Shown: positions 7,897 through 44,347 of the stretch, piece after piece | Layout of the letters: every line of letters starts with the position of its first letter | How positions within the stretch are numbered: position 1 is the first letter of the stretch | Source of the DNA: Micromonospora maritima | Lineage (GTDB): Bacteria > Actinomycetota > Actinomycetes > Mycobacteriales > Micromonosporaceae | Reading direction: 5' to 3' | Length of the DNA: 45,147 nt | Assembly (NCBI RefSeq): GCF_902825405.1 | Contig: NZ_CADEAU010000005.1 | Location: 1-45,147, forward strand | Notes under the pieces: model-generated | What the model was told of the DNA's origin: nothing | The model's database searches: none | The model's input: only the letters and a program-made list of their open reading frames with translations | Translations under genes and position numbers: made by a program

Positions 7897-8256
7897 TCAG
7901 GGCCATTTGGGCGAGGGGAGAGTGGCGAGCACGTCCGCTGGATCGCCCGCCGCGACGACGTGCCGGACGCGCCTGTAGCAGCCGCCGCACAGAGTGACCT
8001 CAGACCAGCTGGCCGCCTGCGGGTCTCGACCGAGCTGCCAGCGCGCCCGGCCCGTCATGGCGCCGTAAGCGGGGTTCCGTCCCGCCGGTCTGCAGTCGCA
8101 GTCGATGTTGATGCAGTATGCGGTGCTCCCGCCGGCCCAGCCGATCTTGGCGCGGGGGTATCCCTTCCAGCACGCGCAGAGATACAGGAAGCGGCTGTCC
8201 GAGGTGCTGTGAATCCGGATCTTCTCGCTGCCGCAGGCTTCACAGGTCGTCGTCAT
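7897..8256 (-). CDS. Multi-cysteine zinc-ribbon protein, 119 aa
   Basis: ATG at 8256 lies inside the 3' end of the integrase gene (17-bp overlap). Cys pairs occur at TTTCEACGSEK, YLCACWKGY, INIDCDCRP and EVTLCGGCYRR, so up to two zinc sites are likely. Overlap with the integrase suggests co-transcription and perhaps a role in recombination control, for example as an excisionase or accessory factor, but no helix-turn-helix is seen. Function is unassigned. Confidence 0.65.
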   Translation of the reverse strand: MTTTCEACGSEKIRIHSTSDSRFLYLCACWKGYPRAKIGWAGGSTAYCINIDCDCRPAGRNPAYGAMTGRARWQLGRDPQAASWSEVTLCGGCYRRVRHVVAAGDPADVLATLPSPKWP

Positions 8257-16660: not shown

Positions 16661-18052
16661 TCACCCCGCCATCTTCTTGCCGGGCAGGTCGCTGGTGACC
16701 ACGCCGCCGGCCAGGCCGTGCGCGATGTCGCCGGCGTACCCGGCCTTGATCTCCTTGCCGGAGAACGCGCCGGCGCGGCGCAACAGCTCCCCCCACACCG
16801 GATCGGCCACGGTCACCCCGTGCACCAGCTCCGGCGTCGGCTCGAACTTCGCGACCGCGCCGCGGGCGCGCGGCGCCGTCCAGCCGGACAGCTCCGGGTC
16901 GATGCCGGCGGCCTCGCAGGCCAGCGCCACCGTCTGCCGGGTGCACGTCGCCTTGCCGGCGATGATCTCCCAGGGCAGCGGGAGGATCGCCCAGACCTCG
17001 GTGTTCGGGTCGATCTGCGAGCCCGACGAGGTGTGCCAGTAGACCAGGTCGGCGGCCATGACCCGCATGACCTTTCCCGGACACAGGACGTCGAGCAGCT
17101 CCTCAGCCCCGCAGGCGTAGACGGTGTTCATCCAGCCGTCCCGCGCGGTGTTGTAGGCCTGCGCGACGGTGTTCCAGGTCGACGAGTCGACGCCCCGGCG
17201 CACCACCATAGTCAGGCGGTCCACCTCGTCGCTCCACGCCCCCTGCAGGATGCCGGCGGCCGAGCGCATCAGCGCCGACCAGCGGCCCATCAGCTCACCC
17301 TGCTCCGCCGGCGACAGCTGCTTGACGATCTCCGGCTTCGAGTGGACCCGCGAGATCATCCACCAGTTCGTCTCGTCGCCGTTGCGCACGCACCGGCGCA
17401 GCAGCATCTGCGCCACCTCGTCGAACGGGTTGGTCCGGCCGTCGAGGGTGAACTGGCGGCGCACGTTGCGGCGCGCCGTGTAGTAGGCCACGAAGCAGGC
17501 CGCGGCCGGGTCGCCGGTGAACTGCTCGAAGCTGATGTCGGCGACCAGGCCGTTGCGACCGACGATCAGTAGCTCGCGCTCGCGCGTCTGCCGGTCCAGT
17601 CGCTCGACCTTGTCGTGCATCCGCGCCAGGTGCCGCAGCAGGCGGTTGTACTGCCGCTTCGACAGGTCCAGCCCGGCGCCCTTCAGCTCGGCCCGGGTCA
17701 TGCGGTGCTTGAACTTGTCCCCCGGCTGCCAGTCGACCGGGTCCGCCGCGCGGGCGATCAGCTCACGCACCTGCCGCGGGTCGGCGGCGTCAACCGTTGT
17801 CGACCACGACTCGGTCAGCCGCAGCAGCACCTCCACCTGGTGGTGCGCGCCGACCGGCCGCGCGAAGTCCGCCGACATCAGCGAGCCCCAGTAGCGGGCC
17901 CGCGAGGCCTGCACCACGTCGCTCAGCAGGCGCTCCTCGTGCCGGCTCAGCTCGTCGCCGAAGCCGGACAGGATCAGCCGCGCCACGTCCTCGGGGCGCA
18001 TGCGCGCGTCGAGGCCGGCGTACAGCTCCTGCAGGATCTTCCACTTCGACAC
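16661..18052 (-). CDS. Unknown 463-aa protein directly downstream of the tRNA array
   Basis: GTG at 18052 follows AGGAGG; the open frame extends upstream to 18409 only because it reads through tRNA genes. The protein is largely helical, with a conserved-looking core CFVAYYTARRNVRRQF, NPFDEVAQMLLRRC and NWWMISRV (residues about 200-260) and a late WGELLRRAG segment. I have the impression of similar 'hypothetical' actinomycete proteins but cannot name a family. Weak likeness to HEAT-repeat RNA-binding proteins such as TROVE was considered, but the vWA/MIDAS part is absent. A 14-bp hairpin separates it from the last tRNA. A role in tRNA handling is speculation from position. Confidence 0.75.
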   Translation of the reverse strand: MSKWKILQELYAGLDARMRPEDVARLILSGFGDELSRHEERLLSDVVQASRARYWGSLMSADFARPVGAHHQVEVLLRLTESWSTTVDAADPRQVRELIARAADPVDWQPGDKFKHRMTRAELKGAGLDLSKRQYNRLLRHLARMHDKVERLDRQTRERELLIVGRNGLVADISFEQFTGDPAAACFVAYYTARRNVRRQFTLDGRTNPFDEVAQMLLRRCVRNGDETNWWMISRVHSKPEIVKQLSPAEQGELMGRWSALMRSAAGILQGAWSDEVDRLTMVVRRGVDSSTWNTVAQAYNTARDGWMNTVYACGAEELLDVLCPGKVMRVMAADLVYWHTSSGSQIDPNTEVWAILPLPWEIIAGKATCTRQTVALACEAAGIDPELSGWTAPRARGAVAKFEPTPELVHGVTVADPVWGELLRRAGAFSGKEIKAGYAGDIAHGLAGGVVTSDLPGKKMAG

Positions 18053-18113: not shown

Positions 18114-18122
18114 CCCAGGTTG

Positions 18123-18197
18123 GTCAGCTGGCCGGATTCGAACCGGCGCCCATCCGGAAAGCGAGAGCCAGAGGTTCCGCCGCAGAACTTCAGCCGA
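18123..18197 (-). tRNA. tRNA-like, Glu(CTC)-type with expanded anticodon loop
   Basis: Acceptor TCGGCTG/CAGCTGA, D-stem GTTC/GAAC and T-arm GCCGG-TTCGAAT-CCGGC are intact. The anticodon stem TCTGG/CCGGA encloses a 10-base loop CTCTCGCTTT instead of seven; reading from the 5' side gives anticodon CTC. The loop is abnormal, so identity is uncertain. Confidence 0.5.
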
Positions 18198-18252
18198 CAC
18201 CTGGAAGCTAGTACCGTGCGCGCCGCTCGTCGAACCAGCGGGGCACCCCACG

Positions 18253-18321
18253 TCCCGGAACTCGGAGTCGAACCGAGGAGAGCGCCGTCATGAGCAGCAC
18301 GTGGGCCCAGCCCATCCCGGG
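18253..18321 (-). tRNA. tRNA-Met(CAT), short D-arm
   Basis: Acceptor CCCGGGA/TTCCGGG, anticodon loop CTCATGA and T-arm CTCGG-TTCGACT-CCGAG. The region for the D-arm is only about 15 bases, so the D-loop is nearly absent. Elongator Met or Ile2 are both possible for CAT. Confidence 0.6.
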
Positions 18322-18342
18322 GAGACACAGTGGATGGCATCG

Positions 18343-18413
18343 AGGCCGTGACCGGATTCGAACCGGCGTACGCGGTTTTGCAGACCGCTCCCTCACCACT
18401 CGGGCACACGACC
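18343..18413 (-). tRNA. tRNA-Cys(GCA)
   Basis: Acceptor GGTCGTG/CACGGCC, anticodon arm GCGGT-CTGCAAA-ACCGC, T-arm GCCGG-TTCGAAT-CCGGT. Discriminator T, no encoded CCA. Confidence 0.9.
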
Positions 18414-18418
18414 GTGAG

Positions 18419-18491
18419 CGCCCCCGGCAGGAATCGAACCTGCGACCCCCAGGCTCGGAACCTGGTGCTCTCTCCGCTGAGCTACGAGGGC
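18419..18491 (-). tRNA. tRNA-Arg(CCG)
   Basis: Acceptor GCCCTCG/CGGGGGC, anticodon arm CCAGG-TTCCGAG-CCTGG, T-arm GCAGG-TTCGATT-CCTGC. Discriminator G. Confidence 0.9.
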
Positions 18492-18495
18492 ATGG

Positions 18496-18577
18496 TGTGC
18501 GCCCCTGGTGCCGACCCAGGTCTGCTCGAAAGCGCCGGATTTACAGTCCGGGGGGCGTGCCGCCGCCCACGACGCAC
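18496..18577 (-). tRNA. tRNA-Tyr(GTA), class II, variant T-loop
   Basis: Acceptor GTGCGTC/GGCGCAC, anticodon arm CCGGA-CTGTAAA-TCCGG, a 14-base variable arm as expected for bacterial tRNA-Tyr, and encoded CCA. The T-loop is GTCGGCA rather than TTCGANN. The next tRNA starts one base after the CCA. Confidence 0.8.
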
Positions 18578-18581
18578 ATGG

Positions 18582-18655
18582 TGTGACTGGGCGGATTCGA
18601 ACCGCCGCCCCCGGGGCCACAACCCGGTGCGCTAGACCGCTGCGCTACAGCCACC
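18582..18655 (-). tRNA. tRNA-His(GTG)
   Basis: An extra 5' G precedes acceptor GTGGCTG/CAGTCAC, as required for His identity. Anticodon arm CCGGG-TTGTGGC-CCCGG. CCA is encoded; position 73 reads A rather than the usual C. Confidence 0.88.
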
Positions 18656-18656
18656 G

Positions 18657-18729
18657 TGCCCGCGCCGGGGATCGAACCCGGGCCCTCTCCGGTGTGAACG
18701 GAGCGCTCATTCCGCTGAGCTACGCGGGC
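18657..18729 (-). tRNA. tRNA-Val(CAC)
   Basis: Acceptor GCCCGCG/CGCGGGC, anticodon arm CTCCG-TTCACAC-CGGAG, T-arm CCGGG-TTCGATC-CCCGG, discriminator A. One base separates it from the His gene. Confidence 0.9.
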
Positions 18730-18734
18730 ATGCG

Positions 18735-18822
18735 CGGAAGGGGTGGGATTCGAACCCACGAGGAGGCTCTTCACCCCCTGCGACGCTTCCAACGCCGCTC
18801 CCGTGACCGCCGGGACCCCTCC
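18735..18822 (-). tRNA. tRNA-Ser(GGA), class II
   Basis: Acceptor GGAGGGG/CCCTTCC, anticodon loop TTGGAAG, a long variable arm and T-arm GTGGG-TTCGAAT-CCCAC. Discriminator G fits Ser. Confidence 0.9.
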
Positions 18823-18826
18823 ATCG

Positions 18827-18899
18827 CTCCGGTGGCTGGATTCGAACCAACGCCTGTACGGATTAACAGTCCGCTGCCCTACCGCTGGGCGACACCGGA
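18827..18899 (-). tRNA. tRNA-Asn(GTT)
   Basis: Acceptor TCCGGTG/CACCGGA, anticodon arm GCGGA-CTGTTAA-TCCGT, T-arm GTTGG-TTCGAAT-CCAGC. Discriminator G. Confidence 0.9.
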
Positions 18900-18928
18900 A
18901 TGAGCGCAGCGCTCGCAGCGCCGCGAAG

Positions 18929-19001
18929 TAGAGCCGACGGGGATCGAACCCGCACGATCCGCCTTGAAAGGGCGGCGACCTGCCAGTTAGTCGACGGCTC
19001 C
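18929..19001 (-). tRNA. tRNA-Glu(TTC)
   Basis: Acceptor GGAGCCG/CGGCTCT with a G1-U72 pair, anticodon arm CCGCC-CTTTCAA-GGCGG, T-arm GCGGG-TTCGATC-CCCGT. Confidence 0.9.
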
Positions 19002-19006
19002 ATGCG

Positions 19007-19078
19007 TGCCCCGAGCTGGTGTCGAACCAGCGGCCTCCTGCTTGTCGAGCAGGCGCTCTCCCGCTGAGCTACCGGGGC
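19007..19078 (-). tRNA. tRNA-Val(GAC) with C33
   Basis: Acceptor GCCCCGG/TCGGGGC, T-arm GCTGG-TTCGACA-CCAGC. The anticodon arm CCTGC-TCGACAA-GCAGG puts C at position 33, where U is nearly universal. Confidence 0.82.
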
Positions 19079-19110
19079 ATGTCGGCCAGCCTGACCAGCG
19101 CCAGGTCGAG

Positions 19111-19143
19111 GCAAATTCATTTGTAACTTAAAGTGTCTTACTC
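19111..19143. promoter_or_regulatory. AT-rich intergenic island
   Basis: About 33 bases (GCAAATTCATTTGTAACTTA and onward) are strikingly AT-rich for this genome and contain the near-palindrome GTAACTTAAAGTGTCTTAC. It lies upstream of the plus-strand gene at 19236 and of the tRNAs reading left, so it may hold divergent promoters. No single -35/-10 pair is clearly best. Confidence 0.4.
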
Positions 19144-19235
19144 GTTGCCCATCTGGGTAGGGAGCAGAGATCGACAGCGAAGATCGCTCCTGCGGTGGAG
19201 GGGCCACCCGGGGGCATGAGCGCTTGGGGGAAGCG

Positions 19236-19712
19236 ATGCCGAGTTTTGTTACCCGCGCCAACGGATCCCGCAACGGGAGCGCCGCCGCCTCGATCAGCAC
19301 CCAGCCCATCACCGAGGCCATCGGGCGGGCCCGCGCCGCCGCCGCCAAGGAGCGCGAGGACCGCGACCACCACGGCCCCGGCTCGTGGCACAAGGGGCTG
19401 CTCATCGGTGCCACGATCGCCGCGCCGGCGAGCTGGATGGGGCTCGCGTGGGCTGTCGTGCAGTGGCGCGACGAGCACGTCACGGTCGTTCACGCGGTCT
19501 GGATCGGCTTCGCCACCGTCCTCGCCGCGGTCTGGGCCGTCATCGCCGCCTCGTACGTCAGCCGGCGGCAGTCCGCCAGCCAGCACGACGAGCTGCTGCT
19601 CGGCTTCGACGCCGTCGCCGACCGAACGATGGACTCCAGTCAGGCCGTCGCCGGCGTCGTGGAGCACCTCGCCAACGCCATCCCGAACGCCAAGGTGCAC
19701 AGCCTCAGGTAG
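19236..19712 (+). CDS. Two-helix membrane protein inside the tRNA array, 158 aa
   Basis: ATG at 19236 is preceded by GGGGGAA; an in-frame TTG at 19224 is less likely. An N-terminal soluble helix (ITEAIGRARAAAAKEREDRD) is followed by two membrane helices (LLIGATIAAPASWMGLAW and AVWIGFATVLAAVWAVIAAS) and a C-terminal helical tail. No family is recognised. It runs against the direction of the surrounding tRNA genes. Confidence 0.7.
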   Translation: MPSFVTRANGSRNGSAAASISTQPITEAIGRARAAAAKEREDRDHHGPGSWHKGLLIGATIAAPASWMGLAWAVVQWRDEHVTVVHAVWIGFATVLAAVWAVIAASYVSRRQSASQHDELLLGFDAVADRTMDSSQAVAGVVEHLANAIPNAKVHSLR

Positions 19713-19808
19713 GTCCGTCGGATACCCGACTGAGCTGCGGCGGGAGGCGGTTCAAGGAGGGCTTGCAGCGTCTGGCCACTGTGGTCCGCGATCGGTACGC
19801 TACTCGTC

Positions 19809-20297
19809 GTGACCGAGCCTGCTGCCACCGTCGACGAGTCCTCCCCCGCCGCTCCGGCCGCGCCCCCACCCCACGACCGCTTCGACGTCTTCCTCGACGC
19901 GATTGGCAGGACCTTCGGACTCGGCTTCGGCCTCGGCATGGCGGCCGTCGTCGTGCTCGTCGCCGTGGCGGTCATCAGCTCCGGCAAGCTCGGCGACATC
20001 TTCGACGAGGACCAGTTCCACGACCGCGTGGACTCGATTAACGCGGTGTACCGGCAGGGCGAGCGCGTCCGGGCGGAGCTGAGCAGGTCGGGCACCGCGC
20101 TGACCAACGAGACCATGTGCGAGGACGCCTTCCACCGCGTGGGCGCCGACGATGAGCGGGTTAACCGCTGGACCAAGGACCAGAAGCCGGACACCGCCTT
20201 CGCCGAGCTGCGCAAGCTGTCGTTCATCAACGGCTGCCTCGGCCGGCCGAACCAGCTGCCGGCGACGCCACTGCCCACGCCGAGCCCAACCAGGTAG
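19809..20297 (+). CDS. Single-helix membrane protein, 162 aa
   Basis: GTG at 19809 appears leaderless, with TACGCT at 19796-19801 seven bases upstream. A Pro/Ala-rich cytoplasmic N-terminus leads into a membrane helix (GMAAVVVLVAVAVISSGKL, about 45-63), then an extracytoplasmic region with a Cys pair (TMCEDAFHRVG and FINGCLGRPN) that could form a disulfide, and a Pro/Thr-rich tail. Function unknown. With the gene at 19236 it splits the tRNA array in two. Confidence 0.7.
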   Translation: MTEPAATVDESSPAAPAAPPPHDRFDVFLDAIGRTFGLGFGLGMAAVVVLVAVAVISSGKLGDIFDEDQFHDRVDSINAVYRQGERVRAELSRSGTALTNETMCEDAFHRVGADDERVNRWTKDQKPDTAFAELRKLSFINGCLGRPNQLPATPLPTPSPTR

Positions 20298-20301
20298 TTG
20301 G

Positions 20302-20376
20302 TAGCGGAGGCTGGATTTGAACCAGCGACCTCTGGGTTATGAGCCCAGCGAGCACTCCGAGCTGCTCTACTCCGCA
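20302..20376 (-). tRNA. Initiator tRNA-fMet(CAT)
   Basis: Anticodon arm CTGGG-CTCATAA-CCCAG has the three G-C pairs typical of initiators. The acceptor TGCGGAG/CTCCGCT has a mismatch at 1-72, and the T-arm GCTGG-TTCAAAT-CCAGC and encoded CCA also match bacterial fMet tRNAs. Confidence 0.9.
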
Positions 20377-20378
20377 AG

Positions 20379-20451
20379 CGCCCCGCGCTGGGATCGAACC
20401 AGCGACACCCGCCTTAGGAGGGCGGTGCTCTGTCCTCTGAGCTAGCGGGGC
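20379..20451 (-). tRNA. tRNA-Arg(CCT)
   Basis: Acceptor GCCCCGC/GCGGGGC, anticodon arm CCGCC-CTCCTAA-GGCGG, T-arm GCTGG-TTCGATC-CCAGC. Discriminator G. It reads the rare codon AGG. Confidence 0.9.
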
Positions 20452-20457
20452 ATGTGG

Positions 20458-20530
20458 TGCGCCGAGCGGGAGTCGAACCCGCGACTTTCGGATTAAGAGT
20501 CCGCAGCTCTGGCCTCTGAGCTACCGGCGC
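20458..20530 (-). tRNA. tRNA-Lys(CTT), copy 1
   Basis: Acceptor GCGCCGG/TCGGCGC, anticodon arm GCGGA-CTCTTAA-TCCGA, T-arm GCGGG-TTCGACT-CCCGC, encoded CCA. Confidence 0.9.
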
Positions 20531-20535
20531 ATGGT

Positions 20536-20606
20536 GCCCCCGGGGAATTCCGACATCCCGACCCGCCGGTTAAGAGCCGGCTGCTCTTCCTCTGAGCTAC
20601 GGAGGC
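20536..20606 (-). tRNA. tRNA-Lys(CTT), copy 2, variant T-loop
   Basis: Acceptor GCCTCCG/CGGGGGC, anticodon arm GCCGG-CTCTTAA-CCGGC, encoded CCA. The T-arm GGGAT-GTCGGAA-TTCCC has an abnormal loop like that of the Tyr gene at 18496 and a mismatched inner pair. Confidence 0.75.
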
Positions 20607-20610
20607 TTGG

Positions 20611-20700
20611 CGGAGAGAAGGAGGGTTGAACTCCTACGGGCTGTTTCACCCCAACCGCTTTCGAGGCGGTGGCCGTCGCCAGCTGTCGGCTGGTCTCTCC
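20611..20700 (-). tRNA. tRNA-Ser(CGA), class II
   Basis: Acceptor GGAGAGA/TCTCTCC, anticodon arm ACCGC-CTCGAAA-GCGGT, long variable arm, T-arm AGGAG-TTCAACC-CTCCT, discriminator G and encoded CCA. Confidence 0.9.
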
Positions 20701-20741
20701 AGGCTGTGACCCGTCGGCTGGCCCGGCCACGTCACCGCCAC

Positions 20742-20842
20742 AGCGACGTCCGGGGAGTCGAACCCCGGCAACACCCACCGCCCCCGGGTAACCCCAGCCA
20801 GGGCTGACATGCCCGGCGGCACCCGGGCCTTGCGGATCAACG
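20742..20842 (-). other. tRNA-like remnant or structured spacer with a T-arm
   Basis: A perfect T-arm-like hairpin (CCGGGG-TTCGACT-CCCCGG, 20750-20768) is followed by GACGTCG, which could pair with CGACGTT just at the 3' end of the adjacent tRNA-Pro. No normal D-arm or 7-base anticodon arm lies between them, only GC-rich hairpins such as GCCCGG/CCGGGC. It may be a decayed tRNA or a processing element. Confidence 0.3.
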
Positions 20843-20917
20843 TCGGGTAGACAGGATTTGAACCTGCGAACCTCCCGGTCCCGAACCGGGCGCGCTACCA
20901 AGCTGCGCCACTACCCG
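20843..20917 (-). tRNA. tRNA-Pro(CGG)
   Basis: Acceptor CGGGTAG/CTACCCG, anticodon arm CCCGG-TTCGGGA-CCGGG, T-arm GCAGG-TTCAAAT-CCTGT, discriminator A. Confidence 0.9.
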
Positions 20918-20921
20918 CTGG

Positions 20922-20994
20922 TCAGGACGGCCGGGCTCGAACCGGCGGCCTCCGGCCCCCCGAGCCGGCGCGCTACCCACTGCGCCACGTCCTG
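20922..20994 (-). tRNA. tRNA-Pro(GGG) with C33
   Basis: Acceptor CAGGACG/CGTCCTG, T-arm GCCGG-TTCGAGC-CCGGC, encoded CCA. The anticodon arm CCGGC-TCGGGGG-GCCGG has C at position 33. Confidence 0.82.
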
Positions 20995-20999
20995 ATGCG

Positions 21000-21072
21000 C
21001 GCCCCCGGCAGGATTCGAACCTGCGACCCCTGGATCCGTAATCCAGTGCTCTATCCGCTGAGCCACGGGGGC
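21000..21072 (-). tRNA. tRNA-Arg(ACG)
   Basis: Acceptor GCCCCCG/CGGGGGC, anticodon arm CTGGA-TTACGGA-TCCAG, T-arm GCAGG-TTCGAAT-CCTGC. A34 would need TadA editing to inosine to read CGN codons fully. Confidence 0.9.
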
Positions 21073-21076
21073 ATGG

Positions 21077-21151
21077 TGTCGTCGGGTGGGCTCGAACCAC
21101 CGCATCTCCGAGTTATCAGCTCGGTGCCTTCACCAGCTTGGCCACGACGAC
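21077..21151 (-). tRNA. tRNA-Ile(GAT)
   Basis: Acceptor GTCGTCG/CGACGAC, anticodon arm CCGAG-CTGATAA-CTCGG, T-arm GGTGG-TTCGAGC-CCACC, encoded CCA. Confidence 0.9.
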
Positions 21152-21155
21152 CTGG

Positions 21156-21242
21156 CGGAGAGGGAGGGATTCGAACCCCCGGCGGTTTCACCCGCTCCGC
21201 GCTAGCAACGCGGCGCCATCGGCCAGACTCGGCCACCTCTCC
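21156..21242 (-). tRNA. tRNA-Ser(GCT), class II
   Basis: Acceptor GGAGAGG/CCTCTCC, anticodon arm CCGCG-TTGCTAG-CGCGG, long variable arm, discriminator G and encoded CCA. Confidence 0.9.
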
Positions 21243-21256
21243 ATGTTCTTGCTGCG

Positions 21257-21330
21257 CGGCGCCGACGGGACTCGAACCCGCGACCTCTGCCGTGACAGGG
21301 CAGCGCTCTAACCATCTGAGCTACGACACC
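21257..21330 (-). tRNA. tRNA-Asp(GTC)
   Basis: Acceptor GGTGTCG/CGGCGCC, anticodon arm CTGCC-CTGTCAC-GGCAG, T-arm GCGGG-TTCGAGT-CCCGT, discriminator G. Confidence 0.9.
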
Positions 21331-21344
21331 TTGGCGCGCGACCT

Positions 21345-21440
21345 CCCAGCCGGCTCGGCTTCCCCGCAGGGGCTCGATCTCGCGTCTGGACCGCCTGTCG
21401 CGCATCAGCGATCCTGCGGCCACGAGCTGGCCGGACTGGG
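21345..21440. ncRNA. Structured RNA candidate between tRNA-Asp and tRNA-Ala
   Basis: An outer 10-bp stem (CCCAG and CCGGC pairing with GCCGG and CTGGG, one bulge) encloses a second stem CCGCAGG/CCTGCGG and an inner TCGC/GCGA. No cloverleaf or ORF fits. It could be a processing stem or a small structured RNA; the strand is undetermined. Confidence 0.35.
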
Positions 21441-21443
21441 CAG

Positions 21444-21516
21444 TGGAATCGGGCGGAGTCGAACCGCCGGCCTCGGGATTGCGAAACCCGCGCTCTACCG
21501 TCTGAGCTACGACCCC
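21444..21516 (-). tRNA. tRNA-Ala(CGC)
   Basis: Acceptor GGGGTCG/CGATTCC has the G3-U70 pair that defines Ala, with A73. The anticodon arm CGGGT-TTCGCAA-TCCCG has a T-T mismatch at 31-39. Confidence 0.87.
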
Positions 21517-21530
21517 AGGTTGTTGCTGCG

Positions 21531-21612
21531 TGCGCTCGGAGGGAGTCGAACCCCCACGCCTCTCGGCACCGGTTTCTGAAACCGGCGTGACTACCATTTC
21601 CACCACGAGCGC
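21531..21612 (-). tRNA. tRNA-Leu(CAG), class II
   Basis: Acceptor GCGCTCG/CGAGCGC, anticodon arm CCGGT-TTCAGAA-ACCGG, long variable arm, discriminator A as expected for Leu. Confidence 0.9.
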
Positions 21613-21617
21613 GTGGT

Positions 21618-21741
21618 GGCCGCCGGCAGGATTTGAACCTGCGACTCCCCGCCCCTCCTCCAGTCGTACGCACTGGCCGTCGGACGTGTCGACCCGTCGA
21701 CGAACGGTGGGGCGGTTGCTCTCCCGCTGAGCTACGGCGGC
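21618..21741 (-). tRNA. tRNA-like gene with a hugely expanded anticodon arm (124 nt)
   Basis: The 5' half is normal: acceptor GCCGCCG, TA, D-arm GCTC...GAGC. So is the 3' end: T-arm GCAGG-TTCAAAT-CCTGC and CGGCGGC. Between them a stem ACCGCCCC/GGGGCGG encloses about 53 extra bases instead of a 7-base loop. The insert holds two GTCGAC palindromes and a hairpin CCAGT-GCGTACG-ACTGG that itself looks like an anticodon arm. It may be an intron-like insertion or a non-decoding tRNA-like RNA. Identity is undetermined; no known group I intron would fit in so short an insert. Confidence 0.55.
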
Positions 21742-21746
21742 ACGAG

Positions 21747-21819
21747 AGCCAGCGGCGGGAGTTGAACCCGCATCCTCCCGATTACGAAACGGGCGCTCTG
21801 CCTGGTGAGCTTCGCTGGC
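21747..21819 (-). tRNA. tRNA-Thr(CGT)
   Basis: Acceptor GCCAGCG/CGCTGGC, anticodon loop TTCGTAA, stem CCCGT/TCGGG with a T-T mismatch at 31-39, T-arm GCGGG-TTCAACT-CCCGC. Confidence 0.85.
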
Positions 21820-21825
21820 GTGCGG

Positions 21826-21899
21826 AGCCGACGGTGGGACTCGAACCCACGACCTGCGGGTTACAAGGCCGCTGCTCTGGCCATCTGAGCTACGTCGGC
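21826..21899 (-). tRNA. tRNA-Thr(TGT)
   Basis: Acceptor GCCGACG/CGTCGGC, anticodon loop CTTGTAA, stem GCGGC/CCCGC with a C-C mismatch at 31-39, T-arm GTGGG-TTCGAGT-CCCAC. Confidence 0.85.
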
Positions 21900-21904
21900 G
21901 TGCG

Positions 21905-21976
21905 CTCCGGGACAAGGATTCGAACCTCGCTTTCCGCATCCAGAGTGCGGCGTCTTGCCGAATAGACGATCCCGGA
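21905..21976 (-). tRNA. tRNA-Gln(CTG)
   Basis: Acceptor TCCGGGA/TCCCGGA, anticodon arm CCGCA-CTCTGGA-TGCGG, T-loop TTCGAAT, discriminator G. Confidence 0.88.
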
Positions 21977-21981
21977 AGGGT

Positions 21982-22008
21982 GGCCGGCGAGTCGCGATCT
22001 CGCCGGCC
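21982..22008 (-). terminator. Terminator-like hairpin after the HNH gene
   Basis: GGCCGGCGAG pairs perfectly with CTCGCCGGCC around TCGCGAT. It lies between the HNH stop (22014) and tRNA-Gln. Confidence 0.65.
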
Positions 22009-22013
22009 GGCGG

Positions 22014-22457
22014 TCAGCGCTGCACGGCGCTCGCCCAGGTGGGGACCGTCGGCTGCAGCTGCAGCTCCATGCCGGCCTCGGCCGGCGTCCGGTCCGCCTT
22101 GCGCTGGTTGCACGAGTAGCAGGCGCTGACGGTGTTCTTGTAGCTGTTCCGACCGCCGCGCGAGCGGGGCAGGATGTGGTCGACGGTCGTGGCAGGGGCG
22201 AGGCAGTACCCGCACCGGTGGCCGTCGCGGCGCAGCACGCCGGCCTTGGACCAGGCGGGGCCGTTGGTGTAGCGCCACTTCGTGACGACGTAGCGGACGA
22301 GCCGCAGGACCTTGGGCATCGGGAAGACGCCGATCAGCCGGTCCGGCTCGGCTTCGTGGATCTCGGCGACCTGGCGCATGAGCATCCGGATCGCGTGTCG
22401 TACGGGGACCCGGTGCAGTGGTCCCAGGTCGGCGTTGAGGACGAGAACGGCGTCCAC
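22014..22457 (-). CDS. HNH endonuclease embedded in the tRNA array, 147 aa
   Basis: GTG at 22457 follows AAAGGAGG at 4-bp spacing. The classical HNH fold is clear: RDGHRCGYCLAPATTVDHIL, then PRSRGGRNSYKNTVSACYSC and NQRKADRTP. This gives two CxxC zinc knuckles, the VDHI catalytic His and the final N-x-x-K. N-terminal VLNADLGPLHRVPVRHAI is the usual leader of this actinophage HNH subgroup. The nuclease may spread itself or tRNA segments by cutting tRNA-array alleles lacking it; that is inference from position. Confidence 0.9.
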   Translation of the reverse strand: MDAVLVLNADLGPLHRVPVRHAIRMLMRQVAEIHEAEPDRLIGVFPMPKVLRLVRYVVTKWRYTNGPAWSKAGVLRRDGHRCGYCLAPATTVDHILPRSRGGRNSYKNTVSACYSCNQRKADRTPAEAGMELQLQPTVPTWASAVQR

Positions 22458-22494
22458 CGGGCCTCCTTTCGTCTCGTGGCCGGTGATCGTTGAG

Positions 22495-22567
22495 AGCGGA
22501 CGACGGGGTTCGAACCCGCGACCTGCACCTTGGCAAGGTGCCGCGCTACCAGCTGCGCTACGTCCGC
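22495..22567 (-). tRNA. tRNA-Gly(GCC)
   Basis: Acceptor GCGGACG/CGTCCGC, anticodon arm GCACC-TTGCCAA-GGTGC, T-arm GCGGG-TTCGAAC-CCCGT, discriminator T as for Gly. Confidence 0.9.
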
Positions 22568-22593
22568 ATGGTGGGTGCTGCTATGGTGCTGAA

Positions 22594-22654
22594 CGCCCGC
22601 CGGACCGGCCGGCCCTGCTTGCAGGGTTCCTCTTCGGAGGCTCTCCGGCGGGCG
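22594..22654. ncRNA. Multibranched structured RNA candidate in the tRNA array
   Basis: A perfect 11-bp closing stem (CGCCCGCCGGA with TCCGGCGGGCG) contains two further hairpins, CCCTGC-TT-GCAGGG and CCTC-TTCG-GAGG, plus a CCGGCCGG segment. No ORF or cloverleaf fits. It lies between tRNA-Gly and tRNA-Thr and could be a small RNA or an RNase III processing signal. Confidence 0.45.
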
Positions 22655-22668
22655 CCTTCGTGTTGTGG

Positions 22669-22741
22669 AGCCGCCGCGGGGAGTTGAACCCCGGGCCTCG
22701 TCCGTACCAAGGACGCGCTCTACCTCCTGAGCTACGGCGGC
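22669..22741 (-). tRNA. tRNA-Thr(GGT)
   Basis: Acceptor GCCGCCG/CGGCGGC, anticodon arm CGTCC-TTGGTAC-GGACG, T-arm CGGGG-TTCAACT-CCCCG, encoded CCA. Confidence 0.9.
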
Positions 22742-22748
22742 GGGTGGA

Positions 22749-23270
22749 TCAGATGGCGCCGAGGCCGACGTGCTCGCCGTGAGCTTGGGCGACCAGGCAG
22801 GGCCATGCCACGGCTGCGCAGGCGCGGCAGACCCATTGCTGACGCTCGCGGCTCCAGGCCGGCCGGTGGTAGGCGGGCGGGAGGGTGAACCGCGTCGTGG
22901 CTTCGAGGCCCTCGATGCCGGCGAGGTCGTCGACGAGCAGCCCGGCTGGGGCGGCGGGTCGGCGGGCCTTGCAGTGCGGGCAGATCAGCGGCGGGCGGCA
23001 GCGGGCGACGTCCTGGATCCCGGGCTCGCCTCCACCCCTCAGGGTGGCCATCGCCTCGTCGAGATCGGCGCCGGTGGCGCGACAGAATGCGCGCACTTTG
23101 CCGATCTCGGGGTAGTCGTCCCATTCGCCGTTCTGCCACCGGAACACCGTGCTCCGGCCGATGTGCCCTTGAACGATCTGGGTGATCGACGTGATCTCGT
23201 CGGTTTTGGCATTCTCGACCGCGCGCCGCACGAATGCGGCCCATCTCTGCTGCGGCGTAGTCGATTGCAT
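22749..23270 (-). CDS. HTH protein with C-terminal zinc ribbon, 173 aa
   Basis: ATG at 23270 (GGGGGGAG 8 bp upstream; GTG 23279 is the alternative). Residues about 25-60 form an XRE-like helix-turn-helix (ITSITQIVQGHIGRSTVFRW, then GKVRAFCRATGADLDEAMAT). The C-terminal half has CRPPLICPHCKARRP and QQWVCRACAAV, a four-Cys ribbon. It is probably a DNA-binding regulator, placed divergent to lsr2 and upstream of tRNA-Thr, so it could control either. Family members with this fusion are seen in phages and mobile elements. Confidence 0.75.
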   Translation of the reverse strand: MQSTTPQQRWAAFVRRAVENAKTDEITSITQIVQGHIGRSTVFRWQNGEWDDYPEIGKVRAFCRATGADLDEAMATLRGGGEPGIQDVARCRPPLICPHCKARRPAAPAGLLVDDLAGIEGLEATTRFTLPPAYHRPAWSRERQQWVCRACAAVAWPCLVAQAHGEHVGLGAI

Positions 23271-23421
23271 CTCCGCCACTCCCCCCAGGCGTTGAGAATC
23301 GCGAGGCCGCTACCTGCTCCAATGGGCGCCCTCGTCTTGATGATCTGCTCAGCTGACGCTACGTTGTGCACCATACCGTCTCGTACGGAGTGGTTCACTC
23401 TGGCTCATCCCTGGGGGACAA

Positions 23422-23838
23422 GTGGCTCGTCAAGAGATCGTCAAGCTGTTCGACGACATCACCGGTGAGGACATCACCGATCAGCGCGGTGCCGGCCGCG
23501 TCGAGTTCGAGGTCGGGGGCAAGCGGTACGAGGTCGACCTCAGCACCAAGAACCAGGACGCGCTCAAGGAGGCTCTGGAGCCCTTCATCTCTGCTGGTCG
23601 GCGCGTCGTCAGCGCCAGCGTCCGCCGGCACCTGGAGTCGCCCAGTCGCCGCACTGCGCACCTGGATCGTGCCCAGCTGGCGGAGATTCGCCGCTGGGGG
23701 CAGGAGAACGCCGCGGCTCTGGGCCTGAAGCCGCCGTCCGACAAGGGTCGGGTCTCCAACGAGGTGCTGGAGGCGTACCGGGAGCACGACGGGCAGCGGG
23801 TGCGCCGGCCGGTGCCGCCCGCGTTTGCCGCCGCCTGA
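23422..23838 (+). CDS. lsr2: Lsr2-family xenogeneic silencer, 138 aa
   Basis: GTG at 23422 with GGGGGA upstream. The N-terminal dimerisation region matches Lsr2 (MARQEIVKLFDDITGEDI, then VEFEVGGKRYEVDLS and NQDALKEALEPFISAGRR). The C-terminal DNA-binding part has IRRWGQENAAALG and SDKGRVSNEVLEAYREH, where the AT-hook-like R-G-R is changed to K-G-R. Lsr2 bridges AT-rich DNA and silences foreign genes in actinomycetes. A copy on a mobile element may hide the element's own DNA or interfere with host Lsr2. It lies inside the tRNA array on the opposite strand. Confidence 0.9.
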   Translation: MARQEIVKLFDDITGEDITDQRGAGRVEFEVGGKRYEVDLSTKNQDALKEALEPFISAGRRVVSASVRRHLESPSRRTAHLDRAQLAEIRRWGQENAAALGLKPPSDKGRVSNEVLEAYREHDGQRVRRPVPPAFAAA

Positions 23839-23851
23839 CGTGCAGAACTGT

Positions 23852-23894
23852 CGACGAGGCCGGTGGTGGGGCGACTCGCTGCCGGCCTTCGTCG
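23852..23894 (+). terminator. lsr2 terminator
   Basis: CGACGAGGCCGG pairs with CCGGCCTTCGTCG (one extra T) around an 18-base loop, 13 bp after the lsr2 stop. Confidence 0.75.
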
Positions 23895-23897
23895 TTG

Positions 23898-23969
23898 AGC
23901 GGTGCCGGGGACTTGAACCCCGCCCAGCAGCTTGGAAGGCTGCCGCTCTGCCAGATGAGCTAGCACCGC
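23898..23969 (-). tRNA. tRNA-Gly(TCC)
   Basis: Acceptor GCGGTGC/GCACCGC, anticodon arm GCAGC-CTTCCAA-GCTGC, T-loop TTCAAGT, discriminator T. Confidence 0.9.
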
Positions 23970-23981
23970 ATTGATCTTGCG

Positions 23982-24055
23982 TAGGCCGTAGGGGGCTCGA
24001 ACCCCTAACCTCCTGGGCGAGAACCAGGTGAGCTGCCAGCTTGCTCCAACGGCCC
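23982..24055 (-). tRNA. tRNA-Glu(CTC)
   Basis: Acceptor GGGCCGT/ACGGCCT with G1-U72 as in the Glu(TTC) gene, anticodon arm CCTGG-TTCTCGC-CCAGG, T-arm AGGGG-TTCGAGC-CCCCT. Confidence 0.88.
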
Positions 24056-24063
24056 ATGGAGCC

Positions 24064-24104
24064 GGCGAGGGGTCGGGTTGCGCGCCCGGGCGCTTCCCCT
24101 CGCC
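24064..24104. other. GC-rich hairpin between tRNA genes
   Basis: GGCGAGGGG pairs with CCCCTCGCC; the loop contains the self-complementary GCGCGCCCGGGCGC. It fills the 50-bp gap between tRNA-Glu(CTC) and the next tRNA-like gene. Confidence 0.5.
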
Positions 24105-24107
24105 AAC

Positions 24108-24177
24108 GTGCCCGACCGGGACTCGAACCCGGAACCTCCCCCTCAGCGGGGTGCTCTGCCACTTGAGCTACCGCGCC
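24108..24177 (-). tRNA. tRNA-like gene with a truncated anticodon arm (Leu(GAG)-like?)
   Basis: D-arm GCTC/GAGC and T-arm CCGGG-TTCGAGT-CCCGG are normal. The anticodon region is three bases short: CCCC and GGGG enclose only GCTGA(G), and the acceptor GGCGCGG/TCGGGCA has two mismatches. GAG can be read in the loop, but the gene lacks the long arm of tRNA-Leu. A pseudogene is possible. Confidence 0.4.
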
Positions 24178-24270
24178 AGCCGGATGCCAGTCCGGCCCCC
24201 GCCCTACCGCTCTCGGTCCTCCTCGCCGCTGGCACGGCGGATCGTCGCGAGTTCGGGTCGGGCGAACCTG

Positions 24271-24343
24271 TGCCCACCGCCGGCGTCGAACCGGCAACCT
24301 CCGAGTTTTCAGCCCGGCGCTCTACCCCCTGAGCTTGGTGGGC
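24271..24343 (-). tRNA. tRNA-Phe(GAA)
   Basis: Acceptor GCCCACC/GGTGGGC, anticodon arm CCGGG-CTGAAAA-CTCGG, T-arm GCCGG-TTCGACG-CCGGC, discriminator A. Confidence 0.9.
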
Positions 24344-24350
24344 GTGCACG

Positions 24351-24423
24351 TGGAATCGCAGGGAGTCGAACCCTGGGCCTCCGCTCTGCCGAAGCGGTGC
24401 TCTACCAACTGAGCTACGACCCC
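24351..24423 (-). tRNA. tRNA-Ala(GGC) with C33
   Basis: Acceptor GGGGTCG/CGATTCC carries G3-U70 and A73. The anticodon arm CCGCT-TCGGCAG-AGCGG has C at position 33. T-arm CAGGG-TTCGACT-CCCTG. Confidence 0.85.
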
Positions 24424-24428
24424 ATCGC

Positions 24429-24460
24429 CCGGCCGCCGACAAGGAGCTGCCGGCGGCCGG
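24429..24460. other. Hairpin in the tRNA-Trp to tRNA-Ala spacer
   Basis: CCGGCCGCCG pairs perfectly with CGGCGGCCGG around a 12-base loop. The rest of the 106-bp spacer (24424-24529) shows nothing else recognisable. Confidence 0.5.
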
Positions 24461-24529
24461 GGTGTTGCATGCCATCCACTGTGTAGTTCTCAATGATCAT
24501 CGCCGAGCCGGCCGAGGCCGGGACGTTGC

Positions 24530-24603
24530 GCAGGGGCGACAGGACTCGAACCTGCAACCGCCGGTTTTGGAGACCGGTGCTCTACCAGTTGAGCTACGCC
24601 CCT
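24530..24603 (-). tRNA. tRNA-Trp(CCA)
   Basis: Acceptor AGGGGCG/CGCCCCT, anticodon arm CCGGT-CTCCAAA-ACCGG, T-arm GCAGG-TTCGAGT-CCTGT, discriminator G as for Trp. It is the promoter-proximal member of the array. Confidence 0.92.
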
Positions 24604-28900: not shown

Positions 28901-29263
28901 TCAAGCGGAGGCACCGCACACGCACTGCTGGGCGTGCGCGGTGCGCGAGAAGGCGCCGAGCAGCAGTGCGGCGGTCTCGACGGCGGCGCAGTCGCAGTGG
29001 TGGTCAACGTGCAGGCGGGTGGTGGGGTTGACCGGGGCGTTGAGGTCAGGGCGGCAGTCGCACAACGGCGACCCGGGGCGCTCCACGATGCGGGCGTCCC
29101 GGAAGCCGTGCTCCACCAGGGCGTCGACGACCCGGCCGGCGAGGTCGGCAACCCACTCCTGGGTGTCCGGGCTGTCATGCAGCAGGCTGTCGACCTCGTC
29201 CAGGCCGTAGTTGTCGAACGGGAACCGGCAAATGGCCATGGCGGCCACGTCGGCGGCAGTCAT
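28901..29263 (-). CDS. Hypothetical protein, 120 aa
   Basis: ATG at 29263 overlaps the stop of the nucleotidyltransferase gene (ATGA). It contains TQEWVADLAGRVVDALVEHG, a Cys-x-Cys (PLCDCRP) and HVDHHCDCAAVE near the end. A metal site is possible. Overlap with the RlaP-type gene suggests joint expression; function unknown. Confidence 0.62.
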   Translation of the reverse strand: MTAADVAAMAICRFPFDNYGLDEVDSLLHDSPDTQEWVADLAGRVVDALVEHGFRDARIVERPGSPLCDCRPDLNAPVNPTTRLHVDHHCDCAAVETAALLLGAFSRTAHAQQCVCGASA

Positions 29264-29946
29264 CAGGCAGTCTCCAGGTGAGCCAGGCGCACGCGGCGCA
29301 GCCACGCCTCGATCGGCGCGGGGTCCGGGTGCGCCGGCAGGGGCGACGTCATGTTGTAGAGGGCACGCTCGGCGCCGGCCAGCAGCTCCAGGGCGATGCC
29401 GGCGTTGCCCGCGGCGACCTGCTCGCCGAAGTTGCGGTACCAGTCCGGGTCGTCCAGCTCGATGCGCAGGCTGCCAGTGCGGTACAGCTCGACACCCTGG
29501 GCGATGAGCCGGGCGAGATGCCTGGCGTGCTTCGCCGTGCGCTTCCGGAGGTCGGAGGAGAACGAACCGTCGCCGCGGTCGTTCAGCTTCTGGAACTGCT
29601 TGGTGGCGTAGCCGAGGTAGGCGCGGCGCACCAGCTCGGAGCCGAGCAGCGTGGAGCGCAGCTCGATCAGCTCGTCGCCGAGCGGGGTTCTGACCTCATA
29701 GAGGCGCTCGGGCAGCCACATCAGCTCCATCGCGGTTGGATTGCAGCCGAGCGCGAGCTTGCAGAGCTTTCTCGCCTCATGCAGCGTGAAGTCAGGGTTC
29801 GTCGTGACGACTGACTCCTTGGGCTGATGCAGCCCGTGGAACTCGACGGTGGGCGCGGCGAAAACCCCAAGCCGGTCAACGTCGGAGCCGCGGTGGGCCA
29901 GCCCGTAGGCGGTCGACCCGACGATGCCGGAGAGCAGGACGTGCAC
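29263..29946 (-). CDS. RlaP-type RNA-repair nucleotidyltransferase, 227 aa
   Basis: GTG at 29946, one base after the upstream stop. The polymerase-beta nucleotidyltransferase signature is plain: LLSGIVGSTAYGL followed by HRGSDVDRLGVF, i.e. G-S ... D-V-D. The following helical region with FTLHEARKLCKLALGCNPTA and MELMWLPE matches the RlaP/YcgL-like family (RNA repair-associated DNA polymerase beta superfamily). These enzymes are proposed to add nucleotides to damaged RNA ends. It shares an operon with the kinase-phosphatase at 30726 and lies 5 kb from the tRNA array, consistent with tRNA repair. Confidence 0.82.
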   Translation of the reverse strand: MHVLLSGIVGSTAYGLAHRGSDVDRLGVFAAPTVEFHGLHQPKESVVTTNPDFTLHEARKLCKLALGCNPTAMELMWLPERLYEVRTPLGDELIELRSTLLGSELVRRAYLGYATKQFQKLNDRGDGSFSSDLRKRTAKHARHLARLIAQGVELYRTGSLRIELDDPDWYRNFGEQVAAGNAGIALELLAGAERALYNMTSPLPAHPDPAPIEAWLRRVRLAHLETA

Positions 29947-30600: not shown

Positions 30601-30726
30601 TCAGCTCCCCTGCTCGCGGTAGTTCCGGGCGCCGAGCGGGCTGCACCTCACCGCGAGCAGCGCGTAGGTGGCCACCGCGCCGAGCGGCAGGGAGGCGAAG
30701 ACGAGAACCTTGCCCCAGAAAGGCAT
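30601..30726 (-). CDS. Small membrane peptide, 41 aa
   Basis: ATG at 30726 overlaps the kinase-phosphatase stop by one base (TGATG). MPFWGKVLVFASLPLGAVAT leads into AYALLAV, one membrane helix, followed by a basic tail. It is too short for standard ORF calling but tightly packed in the operon. Confidence 0.6.
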   Translation of the reverse strand: MPFWGKVLVFASLPLGAVATYALLAVRCSPLGARNYREQGS

Positions 30727-44346: not shown

Positions 44347-44347
44347 G

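What the first reader, a model, noticed from the sequence alone, without database searches (positions are those of the whole stretch)
18123..24603. Mobile tRNA array covering all 20 amino acids
Hand-folded cloverleaves give about 34 good tRNAs plus two or three aberrant ones on one strand. Readable anticodons cover every standard amino acid: Ala, Arg, Asn, Asp, Cys, Gln, Glu, Gly, His, Ile, Leu, Lys, Met, Phe, Pro, Ser, Thr, Trp, Tyr and Val. Phage tRNA sets are usually partial; a complete decoding set beside an integrase and a replication module is rare.
Basis: seen in the sequence. Interest (0 to 1): 0.85.

Follow-up and report, generated by a model that had tools for sequence, protein, structure and literature searches.

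The report
Mobile tRNA array with RNA-repair genes
A virus-like mobile element in a soil bacterium carries its own nearly full spare set of transfer RNAs together with enzymes of the kind that mend cut RNA, which fits a kit for keeping protein synthesis going when the cell destroys its own transfer RNAs; spare sets of this kind are already known, but the mending enzymes and a shared oddity in some of the tRNAs look new and testable.

Summary
The array is real. ARAGORN finds 34 minus-strand tRNAs at 18122-24603 whose anticodons cover all 20 amino acids; the Rfam tRNA model supports 30 of these and adds two. About 30 genes look sound and six units aberrant; tRNA-Tyr has an abnormal T-loop and no Rfam support, and elongator Met is doubtful. 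It is not a full decoding set: 50 of 61 codons, 98.4% of element codons, all redundant with host tRNAs. It is a 'tRNA array unit', a known kind, in Micromonospora, on a contig with integrase and replication genes. Collinear arrays occur in congeners, on another contig of the same genome and on a Nonomuraea plasmid, and in a phage contig that also carries RlaP. What looks new: (1) T4-type Pnkp and RlaP RNA-repair genes on the element, and HAD_SAK_2 repair-type phosphatase genes inside many plasmid arrays; (2) array tRNA-Val(GAC) usually lacks near-universal U33, 8 of 10 against 0 of 28 controls. Best reading: a phage-type replace-and-repair module against tRNA-cutting host toxins. Function is inferred; no target nuclease was identified.

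The parts
18122..24603 (-). tRNA array: 34 ARAGORN genes plus two further Rfam-supported units
24530..24603 (-). tRNA-Trp(CCA), 5'-most gene; also at that end of the C1, G005, G002, G112 and phage L254 arrays
24350..24423 (-). tRNA-Ala(GGC), loop TCGGCAG (C33); acceptor with G3-U70 pair by inspection
   Evidence: sequence
20919..20994 (-). tRNA-Pro(GGG), loop TCGGGGG (C33)
19006..19078 (-). tRNA-Val(GAC), loop TCGACAA (C33)
20299..20376 (-). initiator-type tRNA-Met: no 1-72 pair, GGG/CCC anticodon stem, 87% identical to the closest host Met tRNA; three host copies share the 6/7 acceptor (initiator features recalled)
18122..18197 (-). aberrant tRNA-like gene, 8-nt anticodon loop (tcgc)
18252..18321 (-). 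short tRNA-Met(CAT)-like gene, no Rfam tRNA match over cut-off
18493..18577 (-). tRNA-Tyr(GTA) with abnormal T-loop, no Rfam match over cut-off
20535..20606 (-). additional Lys(CTT)-like tRNA (Rfam only; anticodon read by eye)
21618..21741 (-). 124-nt tRNA-like gene with an insertion of about 50 nt in the anticodon loop, where the G005, C1 and G002 arrays have Met(CAT)
24108..24176 (-). degenerate gene with Leu GAG anticodon on a body without long variable arm
22014..22457 (-). HNH endonuclease gene inside the array
   Evidence: PF01844; 78-80% homologs in L027 and L028
22749..23279 (-). small gene inside the array, HTH-like by inspection only
   Evidence: no Pfam match
19224..19712 (+). gene of unknown family inside the array, opposite strand
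19809..20297 (+). gene of unknown family inside the array, opposite strand
23422..23838 (+). gene inside the array, opposite strand; no family search was run on it
29263..29946 (-). RlaP, RNA-ligase-associated Pol-beta nucleotidyltransferase family, 4.7 kb upstream of the array, same strand
   Evidence: PF10127 64 bits, phrog_388
30726..31649 (-). T4-type Pnkp, kinase plus phosphatase (reading frame extends to 32108)
   Evidence: PF25109, phrog_505 1.2e-81, full-length match to 4xrp and 1ltq
8240..9406 (-). tyrosine recombinase (integrase)
   Evidence: PF00589, phrog_1
37661..38440 (-). DnaB_C-domain ATPase
38499..39893 (-). replicative helicase DnaB
39890..40909 (-). replication initiation protein
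   Evidence: phrog_1408
41507..42124 (-). LexA-type DNA-binding domain protein
43834..44370 (-). single-strand DNA-binding protein
16664..18052 (-). conserved gene of unknown family directly after the array; homologs lie next to tRNA pairs in other Micromonospora

Best explanation
A phage-type mobile element in Micromonospora carries a tRNA replacement-and-repair module. The array supplies a spare, diverged tRNA pool that can read about 98% of the element's codons, including an initiator tRNA; T4-type Pnkp would heal the ends of cut RNA and RlaP probably restores nucleotides. Together they would keep translation of the element's genes going when host ribotoxins or defence nucleases cut host tRNAs in the anticodon loop. 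Shown: the genes, the array order, the divergence from host tRNAs, the phage relative with RlaP. Inferred: expression, charging, and the anti-nuclease role. The loss of U33 in some array tRNAs may be part of the escape (speculative).
For: Array and anticodons. All normal anticodons already present among 50 host tRNAs; mean same-anticodon identity to host tRNAs 73.6%, range 58-93, n=33. Collinearity with arrays elsewhere despite sequence divergence (G005 29/36, C1 16/19, G002 16/18, G112 13/18, Nonomuraea plasmid 16/35; 0 of 1000 shuffles reach any of these). Pnkp with both domains in T4 order and RlaP on the same strand as the array; RlaP also on the sister array contig G005:C5 (60% identity). 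Phage contig L254: portal and head genes, RlaP, then a 20-tRNA array (cut by the locus end) 3.7 kb on, collinear 10/20 with the window (shuffle maximum 8). Plasmid arrays: 9 of 15 plasmids with 17 or more tRNAs have HAD_SAK_2 over cut-off; 9 of the 19 over-cut-off hits on those nine fall inside arrays against 0.48 expected; a tblastn with one such protein found 5 plasmid records, all five array plasmids. Literature: phages counter tRNA cleavage with own tRNAs (PMC11555353 abstract; PMC10264068 passages); jumbo phages combine tRNAs, RNA ligases, kinases and RlaP (PMC7824862 passages).
Against: No relative of the Curtobacterium ATP-dependent RNA ligase was found in the window ORFs; other ligases and RtcB were not tested, and the element is probably cut by the contig ends. 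RlaP homologs occur in 65 of 100 other sampled congeners (E<=0.001, a few weak), and 0 of 80 named genome RlaP loci (the best 80 of 221) have 5 or more tRNAs within 10 kb; only 1 of 11 viral RlaP loci has an array. So RlaP alone is not tied to arrays. RNA-ligase enrichment on array plasmids against neutral controls is not significant (7/11 vs 1/5, p=0.28), and on several array plasmids the ligase lies far from the array. Six array units look degenerate. No promoter match was found. No nuclease target is known. His has A73 where the host has C73, which may hinder charging.
Confidence: 0.5

Rival explanations
1. A general translational-stress survival operon, as shown for the megaplasmid trn operon of Anabaena: normally silent, switched on when ribosome-targeting antibiotics disturb translation, helping host and element survive. 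Actinobacteria such as Micromonospora make such antibiotics (recalled).
For: The Anabaena 26-gene trn operon is repressed by TrcR, induced by translation-targeting antibiotics and aids survival; TrcR also represses rtcB, an RNA-repair gene (PMC10272220, passages). A small regulator-like gene lies inside this array (22749-23279, by inspection only).
Against: No known regulator or inducible promoter identified here; the phage relative points to infection rather than long-term host benefit.
Confidence: 0.22
2. Codon-usage compensation: the array supplies tRNAs for codons that the element uses more than the host does.
For: Proposed for the array of Bifidobacterium megaplasmid pMP7017 (PMC10832533, passages).
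Against: Element codon use correlates at 0.96 with that of ORFs on one other contig of the genome (C1, taken as host), and the array lacks tRNAs for rare A-ending codons; uncovered codons are rare in both. All array anticodons except the aberrant tcgc exist in the host.
Confidence: 0.08
3. A decaying relic of a phage or plasmid array with no present function.
For: Six aberrant units, one with a 50-nt insertion, abnormal Tyr T-loop, A73 in His; a smaller second array in the same genome.
Against: 28 of 34 anticodon stems and 32 of 34 acceptor stems are intact; order and anticodons are kept across genomes while same-anticodon bodies diverge to 54-99% identity; Pnkp aligns over its full length with both domains.
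Confidence: 0.15

Closest known systems
tRNA array units of mycobacterial chromosomes, plasmids and phages (Morgado and Vicente 2018, PMC5966550; Yano et al. 2026, PMC12803027)
   Same: 20 or more tRNAs at 2 or more per kb, 19-20 amino acids, largely redundant with host tRNAs (and, in M. avium, differing from them in sequence), often an HNH gene inside, on mobile elements
   Different: Here in Micromonospora, with T4-type Pnkp and RlaP on the element; tRNA order not collinear with the mycobacterial plasmid arrays L084 and L092. The words 'RNA ligase' and 'repair' do not occur in either paper's text as searched, nor 'polynucleotide' in the second.
Phage tRNA clusters with RNA-repair genes (T4 Pnkp/Rnl1, recalled; jumbo phages, PMC7824862)
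   Same: tRNAs plus Pnkp plus RlaP; a collinear array with RlaP lies in a phage contig
   Different: No RNA ligase and no virion genes were recognised among the window ORFs searched; integrase and near-full-set array present
Anabaena PCC 7120 delta-plasmid trn operon (PMC10272220)
   Same: Long plasmid-borne tRNA operon beside a full housekeeping set
   Different: Regulation and function there are experimental; here nothing is measured, and no TrcR homolog was sought
ICEAcaTY.2 of Acidithiobacillus caldus with a 37-tRNA cluster (recalled, not read here)
   Same: Integrative element with a large tRNA cluster
   Different: Proteobacterial conjugative element; no conjugation genes were recognised among the window ORFs searched

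Membership tests
tRNA array unit (definition in PMC5966550: at least 20 tRNA genes, at least 2 per kb) | At least 20 tRNA genes | tested here: met
   34 by ARAGORN, 32 by the Rfam tRNA model
tRNA array unit | At least 2 tRNA genes per kb | tested here: met
   36 units in 6.48 kb, about 5.5 per kb
Integrative or phage-type mobile element | Site-specific integrase and own replication genes | tested here: met
Integrative or phage-type mobile element | attL/attR boundaries or circular form | tested here: inconclusive
   Window is one whole contig, no exact terminal overlap of 16-200 bases, no host tRNA 18-mer outside the array
Temperate phage or prophage | Virion structural genes | tested here: not met
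   None among the 20 window ORFs scanned with PHROGs; the contig may hold only part of the element
T4 Pnkp family | N-terminal P-loop kinase and C-terminal HAD phosphatase in one chain | tested here: met
   Residues 2-307 align with 4xrp and 1ltq; PF25109 and AAA_33
RlaP | Match over Pfam cut-off | tested here: met
   64.3 bits against 23
Phage anti-anticodon-nuclease tRNA/RNA repair system | Demonstrated rescue from tRNA cleavage | not testable with these tools
   needs experiment
Phage anti-anticodon-nuclease tRNA/RNA repair system | RNA ligase partner | tested here: inconclusive
   No relative of the Curtobacterium ligase in window ORFs; RtcB and the rest of the element not examined

The most novel reading that the evidence does not exclude
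Mobile tRNA arrays of phages, plasmids and integrative elements are one widespread 'replace and repair' counter-defence: a near-full spare tRNA set, RNA-healing enzymes carried in or near it (Pnkp, RlaP, HAD_SAK_2 phosphatase, RNA ligase), and tRNAs whose anticodon loops have lost the near-universal U33 so that U33-dependent ribotoxins cannot cut them. The loss is most regular in Val(GAC), where it recurs in arrays without common gene order, and is shared by Ala(GGC) and Pro(GGG) in the Micromonospora-type arrays; it would mark specific, still unknown, host nucleases.
Probability: 0.3. Interest if true: 0.72.

Novelty: new variant of a known kind. Interest (0 to 1): 0.52.

Why it matters
What plasmid and integrative tRNA arrays do is an open question: recent work on Mycobacterium avium plasmids calls the role of the array unit unknown and its antidefence role putative (PMC12803027). 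A link between arrays and RNA-repair genes, and a shared departure from U33, turn that question into direct tests: which nuclease cuts host Val(GAC), Ala(GGC) or Pro(GGG) but spares the array copies, and does Pnkp/RlaP removal undo protection. C33 elongator tRNAs, if functional, would also be useful for studying the U-turn in decoding.

Tried and rejected
Codon compensation as the main role: set aside on codon-use correlation and coverage. Marker gene 16664-18052: the AlphaFold model was poor (mean pLDDT 51.5), so no fold search was run; no family hit in Pfam, PHROGs, NCBIfam and PADLOC. Pnkp search of genome and viral collections by peptide patterns gave no relative, and DnaB none in viral contigs. 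att site at a host tRNA: none found. Region 9500-16600 against congeners: the permease gene matched in most, with shorter matches to the regulator and acetyltransferase genes; in some congeners the permease and acetyltransferase matches lie side by side, so this stretch may be chromosomal flank or acquired cargo; no empty site was worked out. A spliced-intron reading of 21618-21741 was considered from its fold but not formally tested. Promoter and terminator scans were at chance level. PADLOC on 10 window ORFs: only a weak JetA match.

Wrong or weak steps of mine: one search used coordinates that fall on tRNA-Ser(GCT) instead of Val(GAC); its loci were kept only as general controls, and the proper Val(GAC) control is. 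An earlier count said 37 C5 tRNAs; the right number is 32.

Limits of the association test: the 11 plasmids selected by tRNA similarity come from the 20 records listed (505 had a match); the other 9 listed were not fetched (one, TY81, resembles TY66 in every listed value). Nine plasmids were picked because of an RNA-ligase hit; two of them (Curtobacterium pusillum and Arthrobacter caoxuetaonis) are also in the tRNA list and were counted there; the other seven were left out of the unbiased comparison. The five controls are actinobacterial plasmids met through a kinase search, not matched by family or size; one of them (Mycobacterium adipatum) has an RNA-ligase domain over cut-off. The array spans were typed from tRNA positions, some rounded; one HAD_SAK_2 match below cut-off and the two on the tRNA-free Glaciihabitans plasmid were not counted among the 19. 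The nine in-array genes come from three lineages (Curtobacterium, Micrococcaceae, Tsukamurella) and are not independent. The CBMA213 array gene L084:12262-12825 reaches HAD_SAK_2 only below cut-off (17.6 bits) and was not counted.


Full report
What is there. The window is one complete 45,147-bp contig (C5) of a 6.23-Mb draft genome in 986 contigs. The genus is Micromonospora: a sampled congener (G011) has a contig of the same length, with RlaP at the same position, as a Micromonospora rubida record. ARAGORN tRNAs at 18122-24603, all minus strand, with anticodons for 20 amino acids. The Rfam tRNA model over cut-off gives 32 places, 30 of them ARAGORN genes and two new, 20535-20606 and 21619-21741. 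Six units are aberrant: an 8-nt anticodon loop at 18122, a short Met-like gene at 18252, a Tyr with an abnormal T-loop at 18493, a Lys-like gene at 20535 that ARAGORN rejects, a 124-nt gene with about 50 extra nt in the anticodon loop at 21618 (fold z-score -3.0), and a degenerate Leu(GAG) at 24108. The other 30 look sound, four of them with one anticodon-stem mismatch. The gene at 20299 is initiator-like (no 1-72 pair; 87% identity to its closest host Met tRNA).

Decoding. With ordinary wobble the array reads 50 of 61 codons and 98.4% of 7,419 codons in 35 element ORFs; without the doubtful Leu(GAG), 95.4%. The 50 scattered host tRNAs fetched have 43 anticodons; every normal array anticodon is among them. 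Element codon use correlates at 0.96 with that of ORFs picked on contig C1 of the same genome. The array is thus a spare set, not a supplement for odd codons.

Relatives. Related arrays lie in the same genome (contig C1, 19 tRNAs), in sampled congeners (G005, 36 tRNAs; G002, 18), in a genome of another family (G112, 18) and on a linear Nonomuraea plasmid (35). Their order follows the window's far beyond shuffles: longest common subsequence 16/19 (C1), 29/36 (G005), 16/18 (G002), 13/18 (G112), 16/35 (Nonomuraea), 0 of 1000 shuffles reaching each. Five other arrays tested, Mycolicibacterium CBMA213 and TY66, Tsukamurella, Curtobacterium and Paenarthrobacter, are not collinear. Mean same-anticodon identity is 73.6% to host tRNAs and 76.2% to G005, so order and decoding set are kept while bodies diverge.

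Mobile context. Integrase, DnaB, a second DnaB_C protein, a phage-type replication initiator, SSB and a LexA-like gene lie on the contig. No virion or conjugation gene was recognised in the ORFs scanned. The strongest pointer to origin is viral contig L254 (IMG/VR, 93 kb, of which 20.7 kb was read): portal (2e-139) and head genes, RlaP (49% identity to the window's), and 3.7 kb further a 20-tRNA array, cut by the end of the stretch, that starts with Trp and is collinear with the window (10/20, shuffle maximum 8) and with G005 (13/20, no shuffles run). In both L254 and the window RlaP precedes the array on the same strand; in G005 it follows the array.

RNA repair. The window encodes a full-length T4-type Pnkp (alignment over residues 2-307 with both kinase and phosphatase parts) and RlaP. 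On plasmids, HAD_SAK_2 ('HAD domain in Swiss Army Knife RNA repair proteins') genes sit between the tRNAs in Curtobacterium, Micrococcaceae and Tsukamurella arrays, and the Curtobacterium arrays add an RNA ligase. Of 15 plasmids with 17 or more tRNAs, 9 have HAD_SAK_2 over cut-off; of 8 plasmids without tRNAs, 1 does (Fisher p=0.07). For the 11 plasmids selected by tRNA similarity against 5 neutral controls: HAD_SAK_2 8/11 vs 0/5 (p=0.026), RNA ligase 7/11 vs 1/5 (p=0.28), either 9/11 vs 1/5 (p=0.036). In the nine array plasmids with HAD_SAK_2, 9 of 19 over-cut-off hits fall inside the array against 0.48 expected, though these are three lineages with approximate spans. A tblastn with the Pseudarthrobacter HAD protein found 5 of 72,556 plasmid records, and all five are array plasmids. 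Against the link: 0 of 80 named genome RlaP loci (best 80 of 221) and only 1 of 11 viral RlaP loci have an array within reach; RlaP homologs occur in 65 of 100 other sampled congeners; and in the Micrococcaceae and Jeotgalibacillus plasmids the RNA ligase lies far from the listed array tRNAs.

U33. Every one of 161 control tRNAs with intact anticodon stems (48 host, 113 from non-array loci of other actinobacterial genomes, at most 6 tRNAs per locus) has T33; 25 of 435 array tRNAs do not, 23 with C33 and two with A33 (p=4e-4). Eighteen of the 25 have G34. Val(GAC) stands out: 8 of 10 array copies (window, C1, four Micrococcaceae plasmids, two mycobacteriophages) lack T33; G005 and Tsukamurella keep it; 0 of 28 controls lack it (p=9e-7). 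Ala(GGC) has C33 in window, C1, G005 and G002 but T33 in the seven plasmid arrays with that anticodon and in one phage. Pro(GGG) has C33 in window and G005 but T33 in six plasmid arrays. Curtobacterium, Tsukamurella, Nonomuraea and TY66 arrays and phage Atuin have no non-T33 tRNA. Copies within a lineage are related, so the p-values overstate independence; yet the Val(GAC) genes of window and Micrococcaceae are only 69-72% alike and the Paenarthrobacter array is not collinear with the window; the phage copies are closer to the window's (78 and 82%). That U33 is near-universal is recalled knowledge, borne out by the controls.

Reading. Phage tRNAs are known to rescue phages from tRNA-cutting defences (PMC11555353, abstract), and anticodon-loop changes in mycobacteriophage tRNAs were read as escape from VapC-type nucleases (PMC10264068, passages; 'U33' and 'position 33' do not occur in it). 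Jumbo phages combine tRNAs with ligases, kinases and RlaP (PMC7824862, passages). The window fits this logic on an integrative element. The Anabaena trn operon offers the main rival: a stress operon induced by antibiotics (PMC10272220, passages). Both may hold.

Novelty. tRNA array units on mobile elements, covering up to 20 amino acids, are published (PMC5966550: abstract, first part of Results, passages; PMC12803027: abstract, introduction, section 3.1, passages). The link of plasmid or integrative arrays to RNA-repair genes, and the C33 signature, were not found in print by the searches made: 'tRNA array' with 'RNA ligase' and 'polynucleotide kinase' (15 of 742 listed), 'tRNA array' with 'plasmid' and 'RNA repair' (one paper, Anabaena), 'C33' with U-turn terms (8 of 15 listed), and word searches in three papers. 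The library holds open-licence papers only.

Noticed in passing
16664-18052 (-); loci L007-L012: Protein family of unknown fold; 6 of 100 other sampled congeners have 45-49% homologs (one with a stop inside), each with tRNA-Pro(AGG) plus a Gln, Lys or Arg tRNA directly downstream. A34 in a bacterial tRNA-Pro is unusual (recalled).
   Followed up: partly
21618-21741 (-): 124-nt tRNA-like gene with intact acceptor, D and T arms and a structured insertion of about 50 nt in the anticodon loop.
   Followed up: partly
20740-20842 (-): Stretch with a T-arm-like hairpin between array tRNAs, possibly a tRNA relic.
   Followed up: no
L002 14741-16590 (contig C1 of the same genome): Second, smaller, collinear array of 19 tRNAs in a metabolic neighbourhood, including Leu-anticodon tRNAs without long variable arm.
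   Followed up: partly
22014-22457 (-): The HNH gene inside the array has 77-82% DNA matches in most of the 18 sampled congeners; two such loci checked (L016, L017) hold no tRNA, so the gene is also common outside arrays.
   Followed up: partly
L085 12444-12834; L087 3186-3574; L089 9876-10263; L090 7781-8168: tmRNA genes within or beside plasmid tRNA arrays.
   Followed up: no
L098 7261-8904 and 9485-9898: Arthrobacter phage Atuin has a Ro-like RNA-binding protein inside its tRNA array and an annotated phosphatase right after it.
   Followed up: no
L254 16517-16591 and 16796-16868: In the phage array, Thr(GGT) also has C33 (not in the counts), and one tRNA has a CTA anticodon, called Pyl by ARAGORN.
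   Followed up: no
18579-18654 (-): Array tRNA-His has A73 where the host tRNA-His has C73.
   Followed up: no
11547-12368 (+) and 15143-16531 (+): Cargo-like genes: GPP34 family and JmjC_2/cupin family.
   Followed up: no
W14 (CP009417) and W16 (NZ_CP143488): Jeotgalibacillus and Pseudomonas megaplasmids with 41 tRNAs each also carry RNA-ligase genes; both were picked through a ligase search.
   Followed up: no
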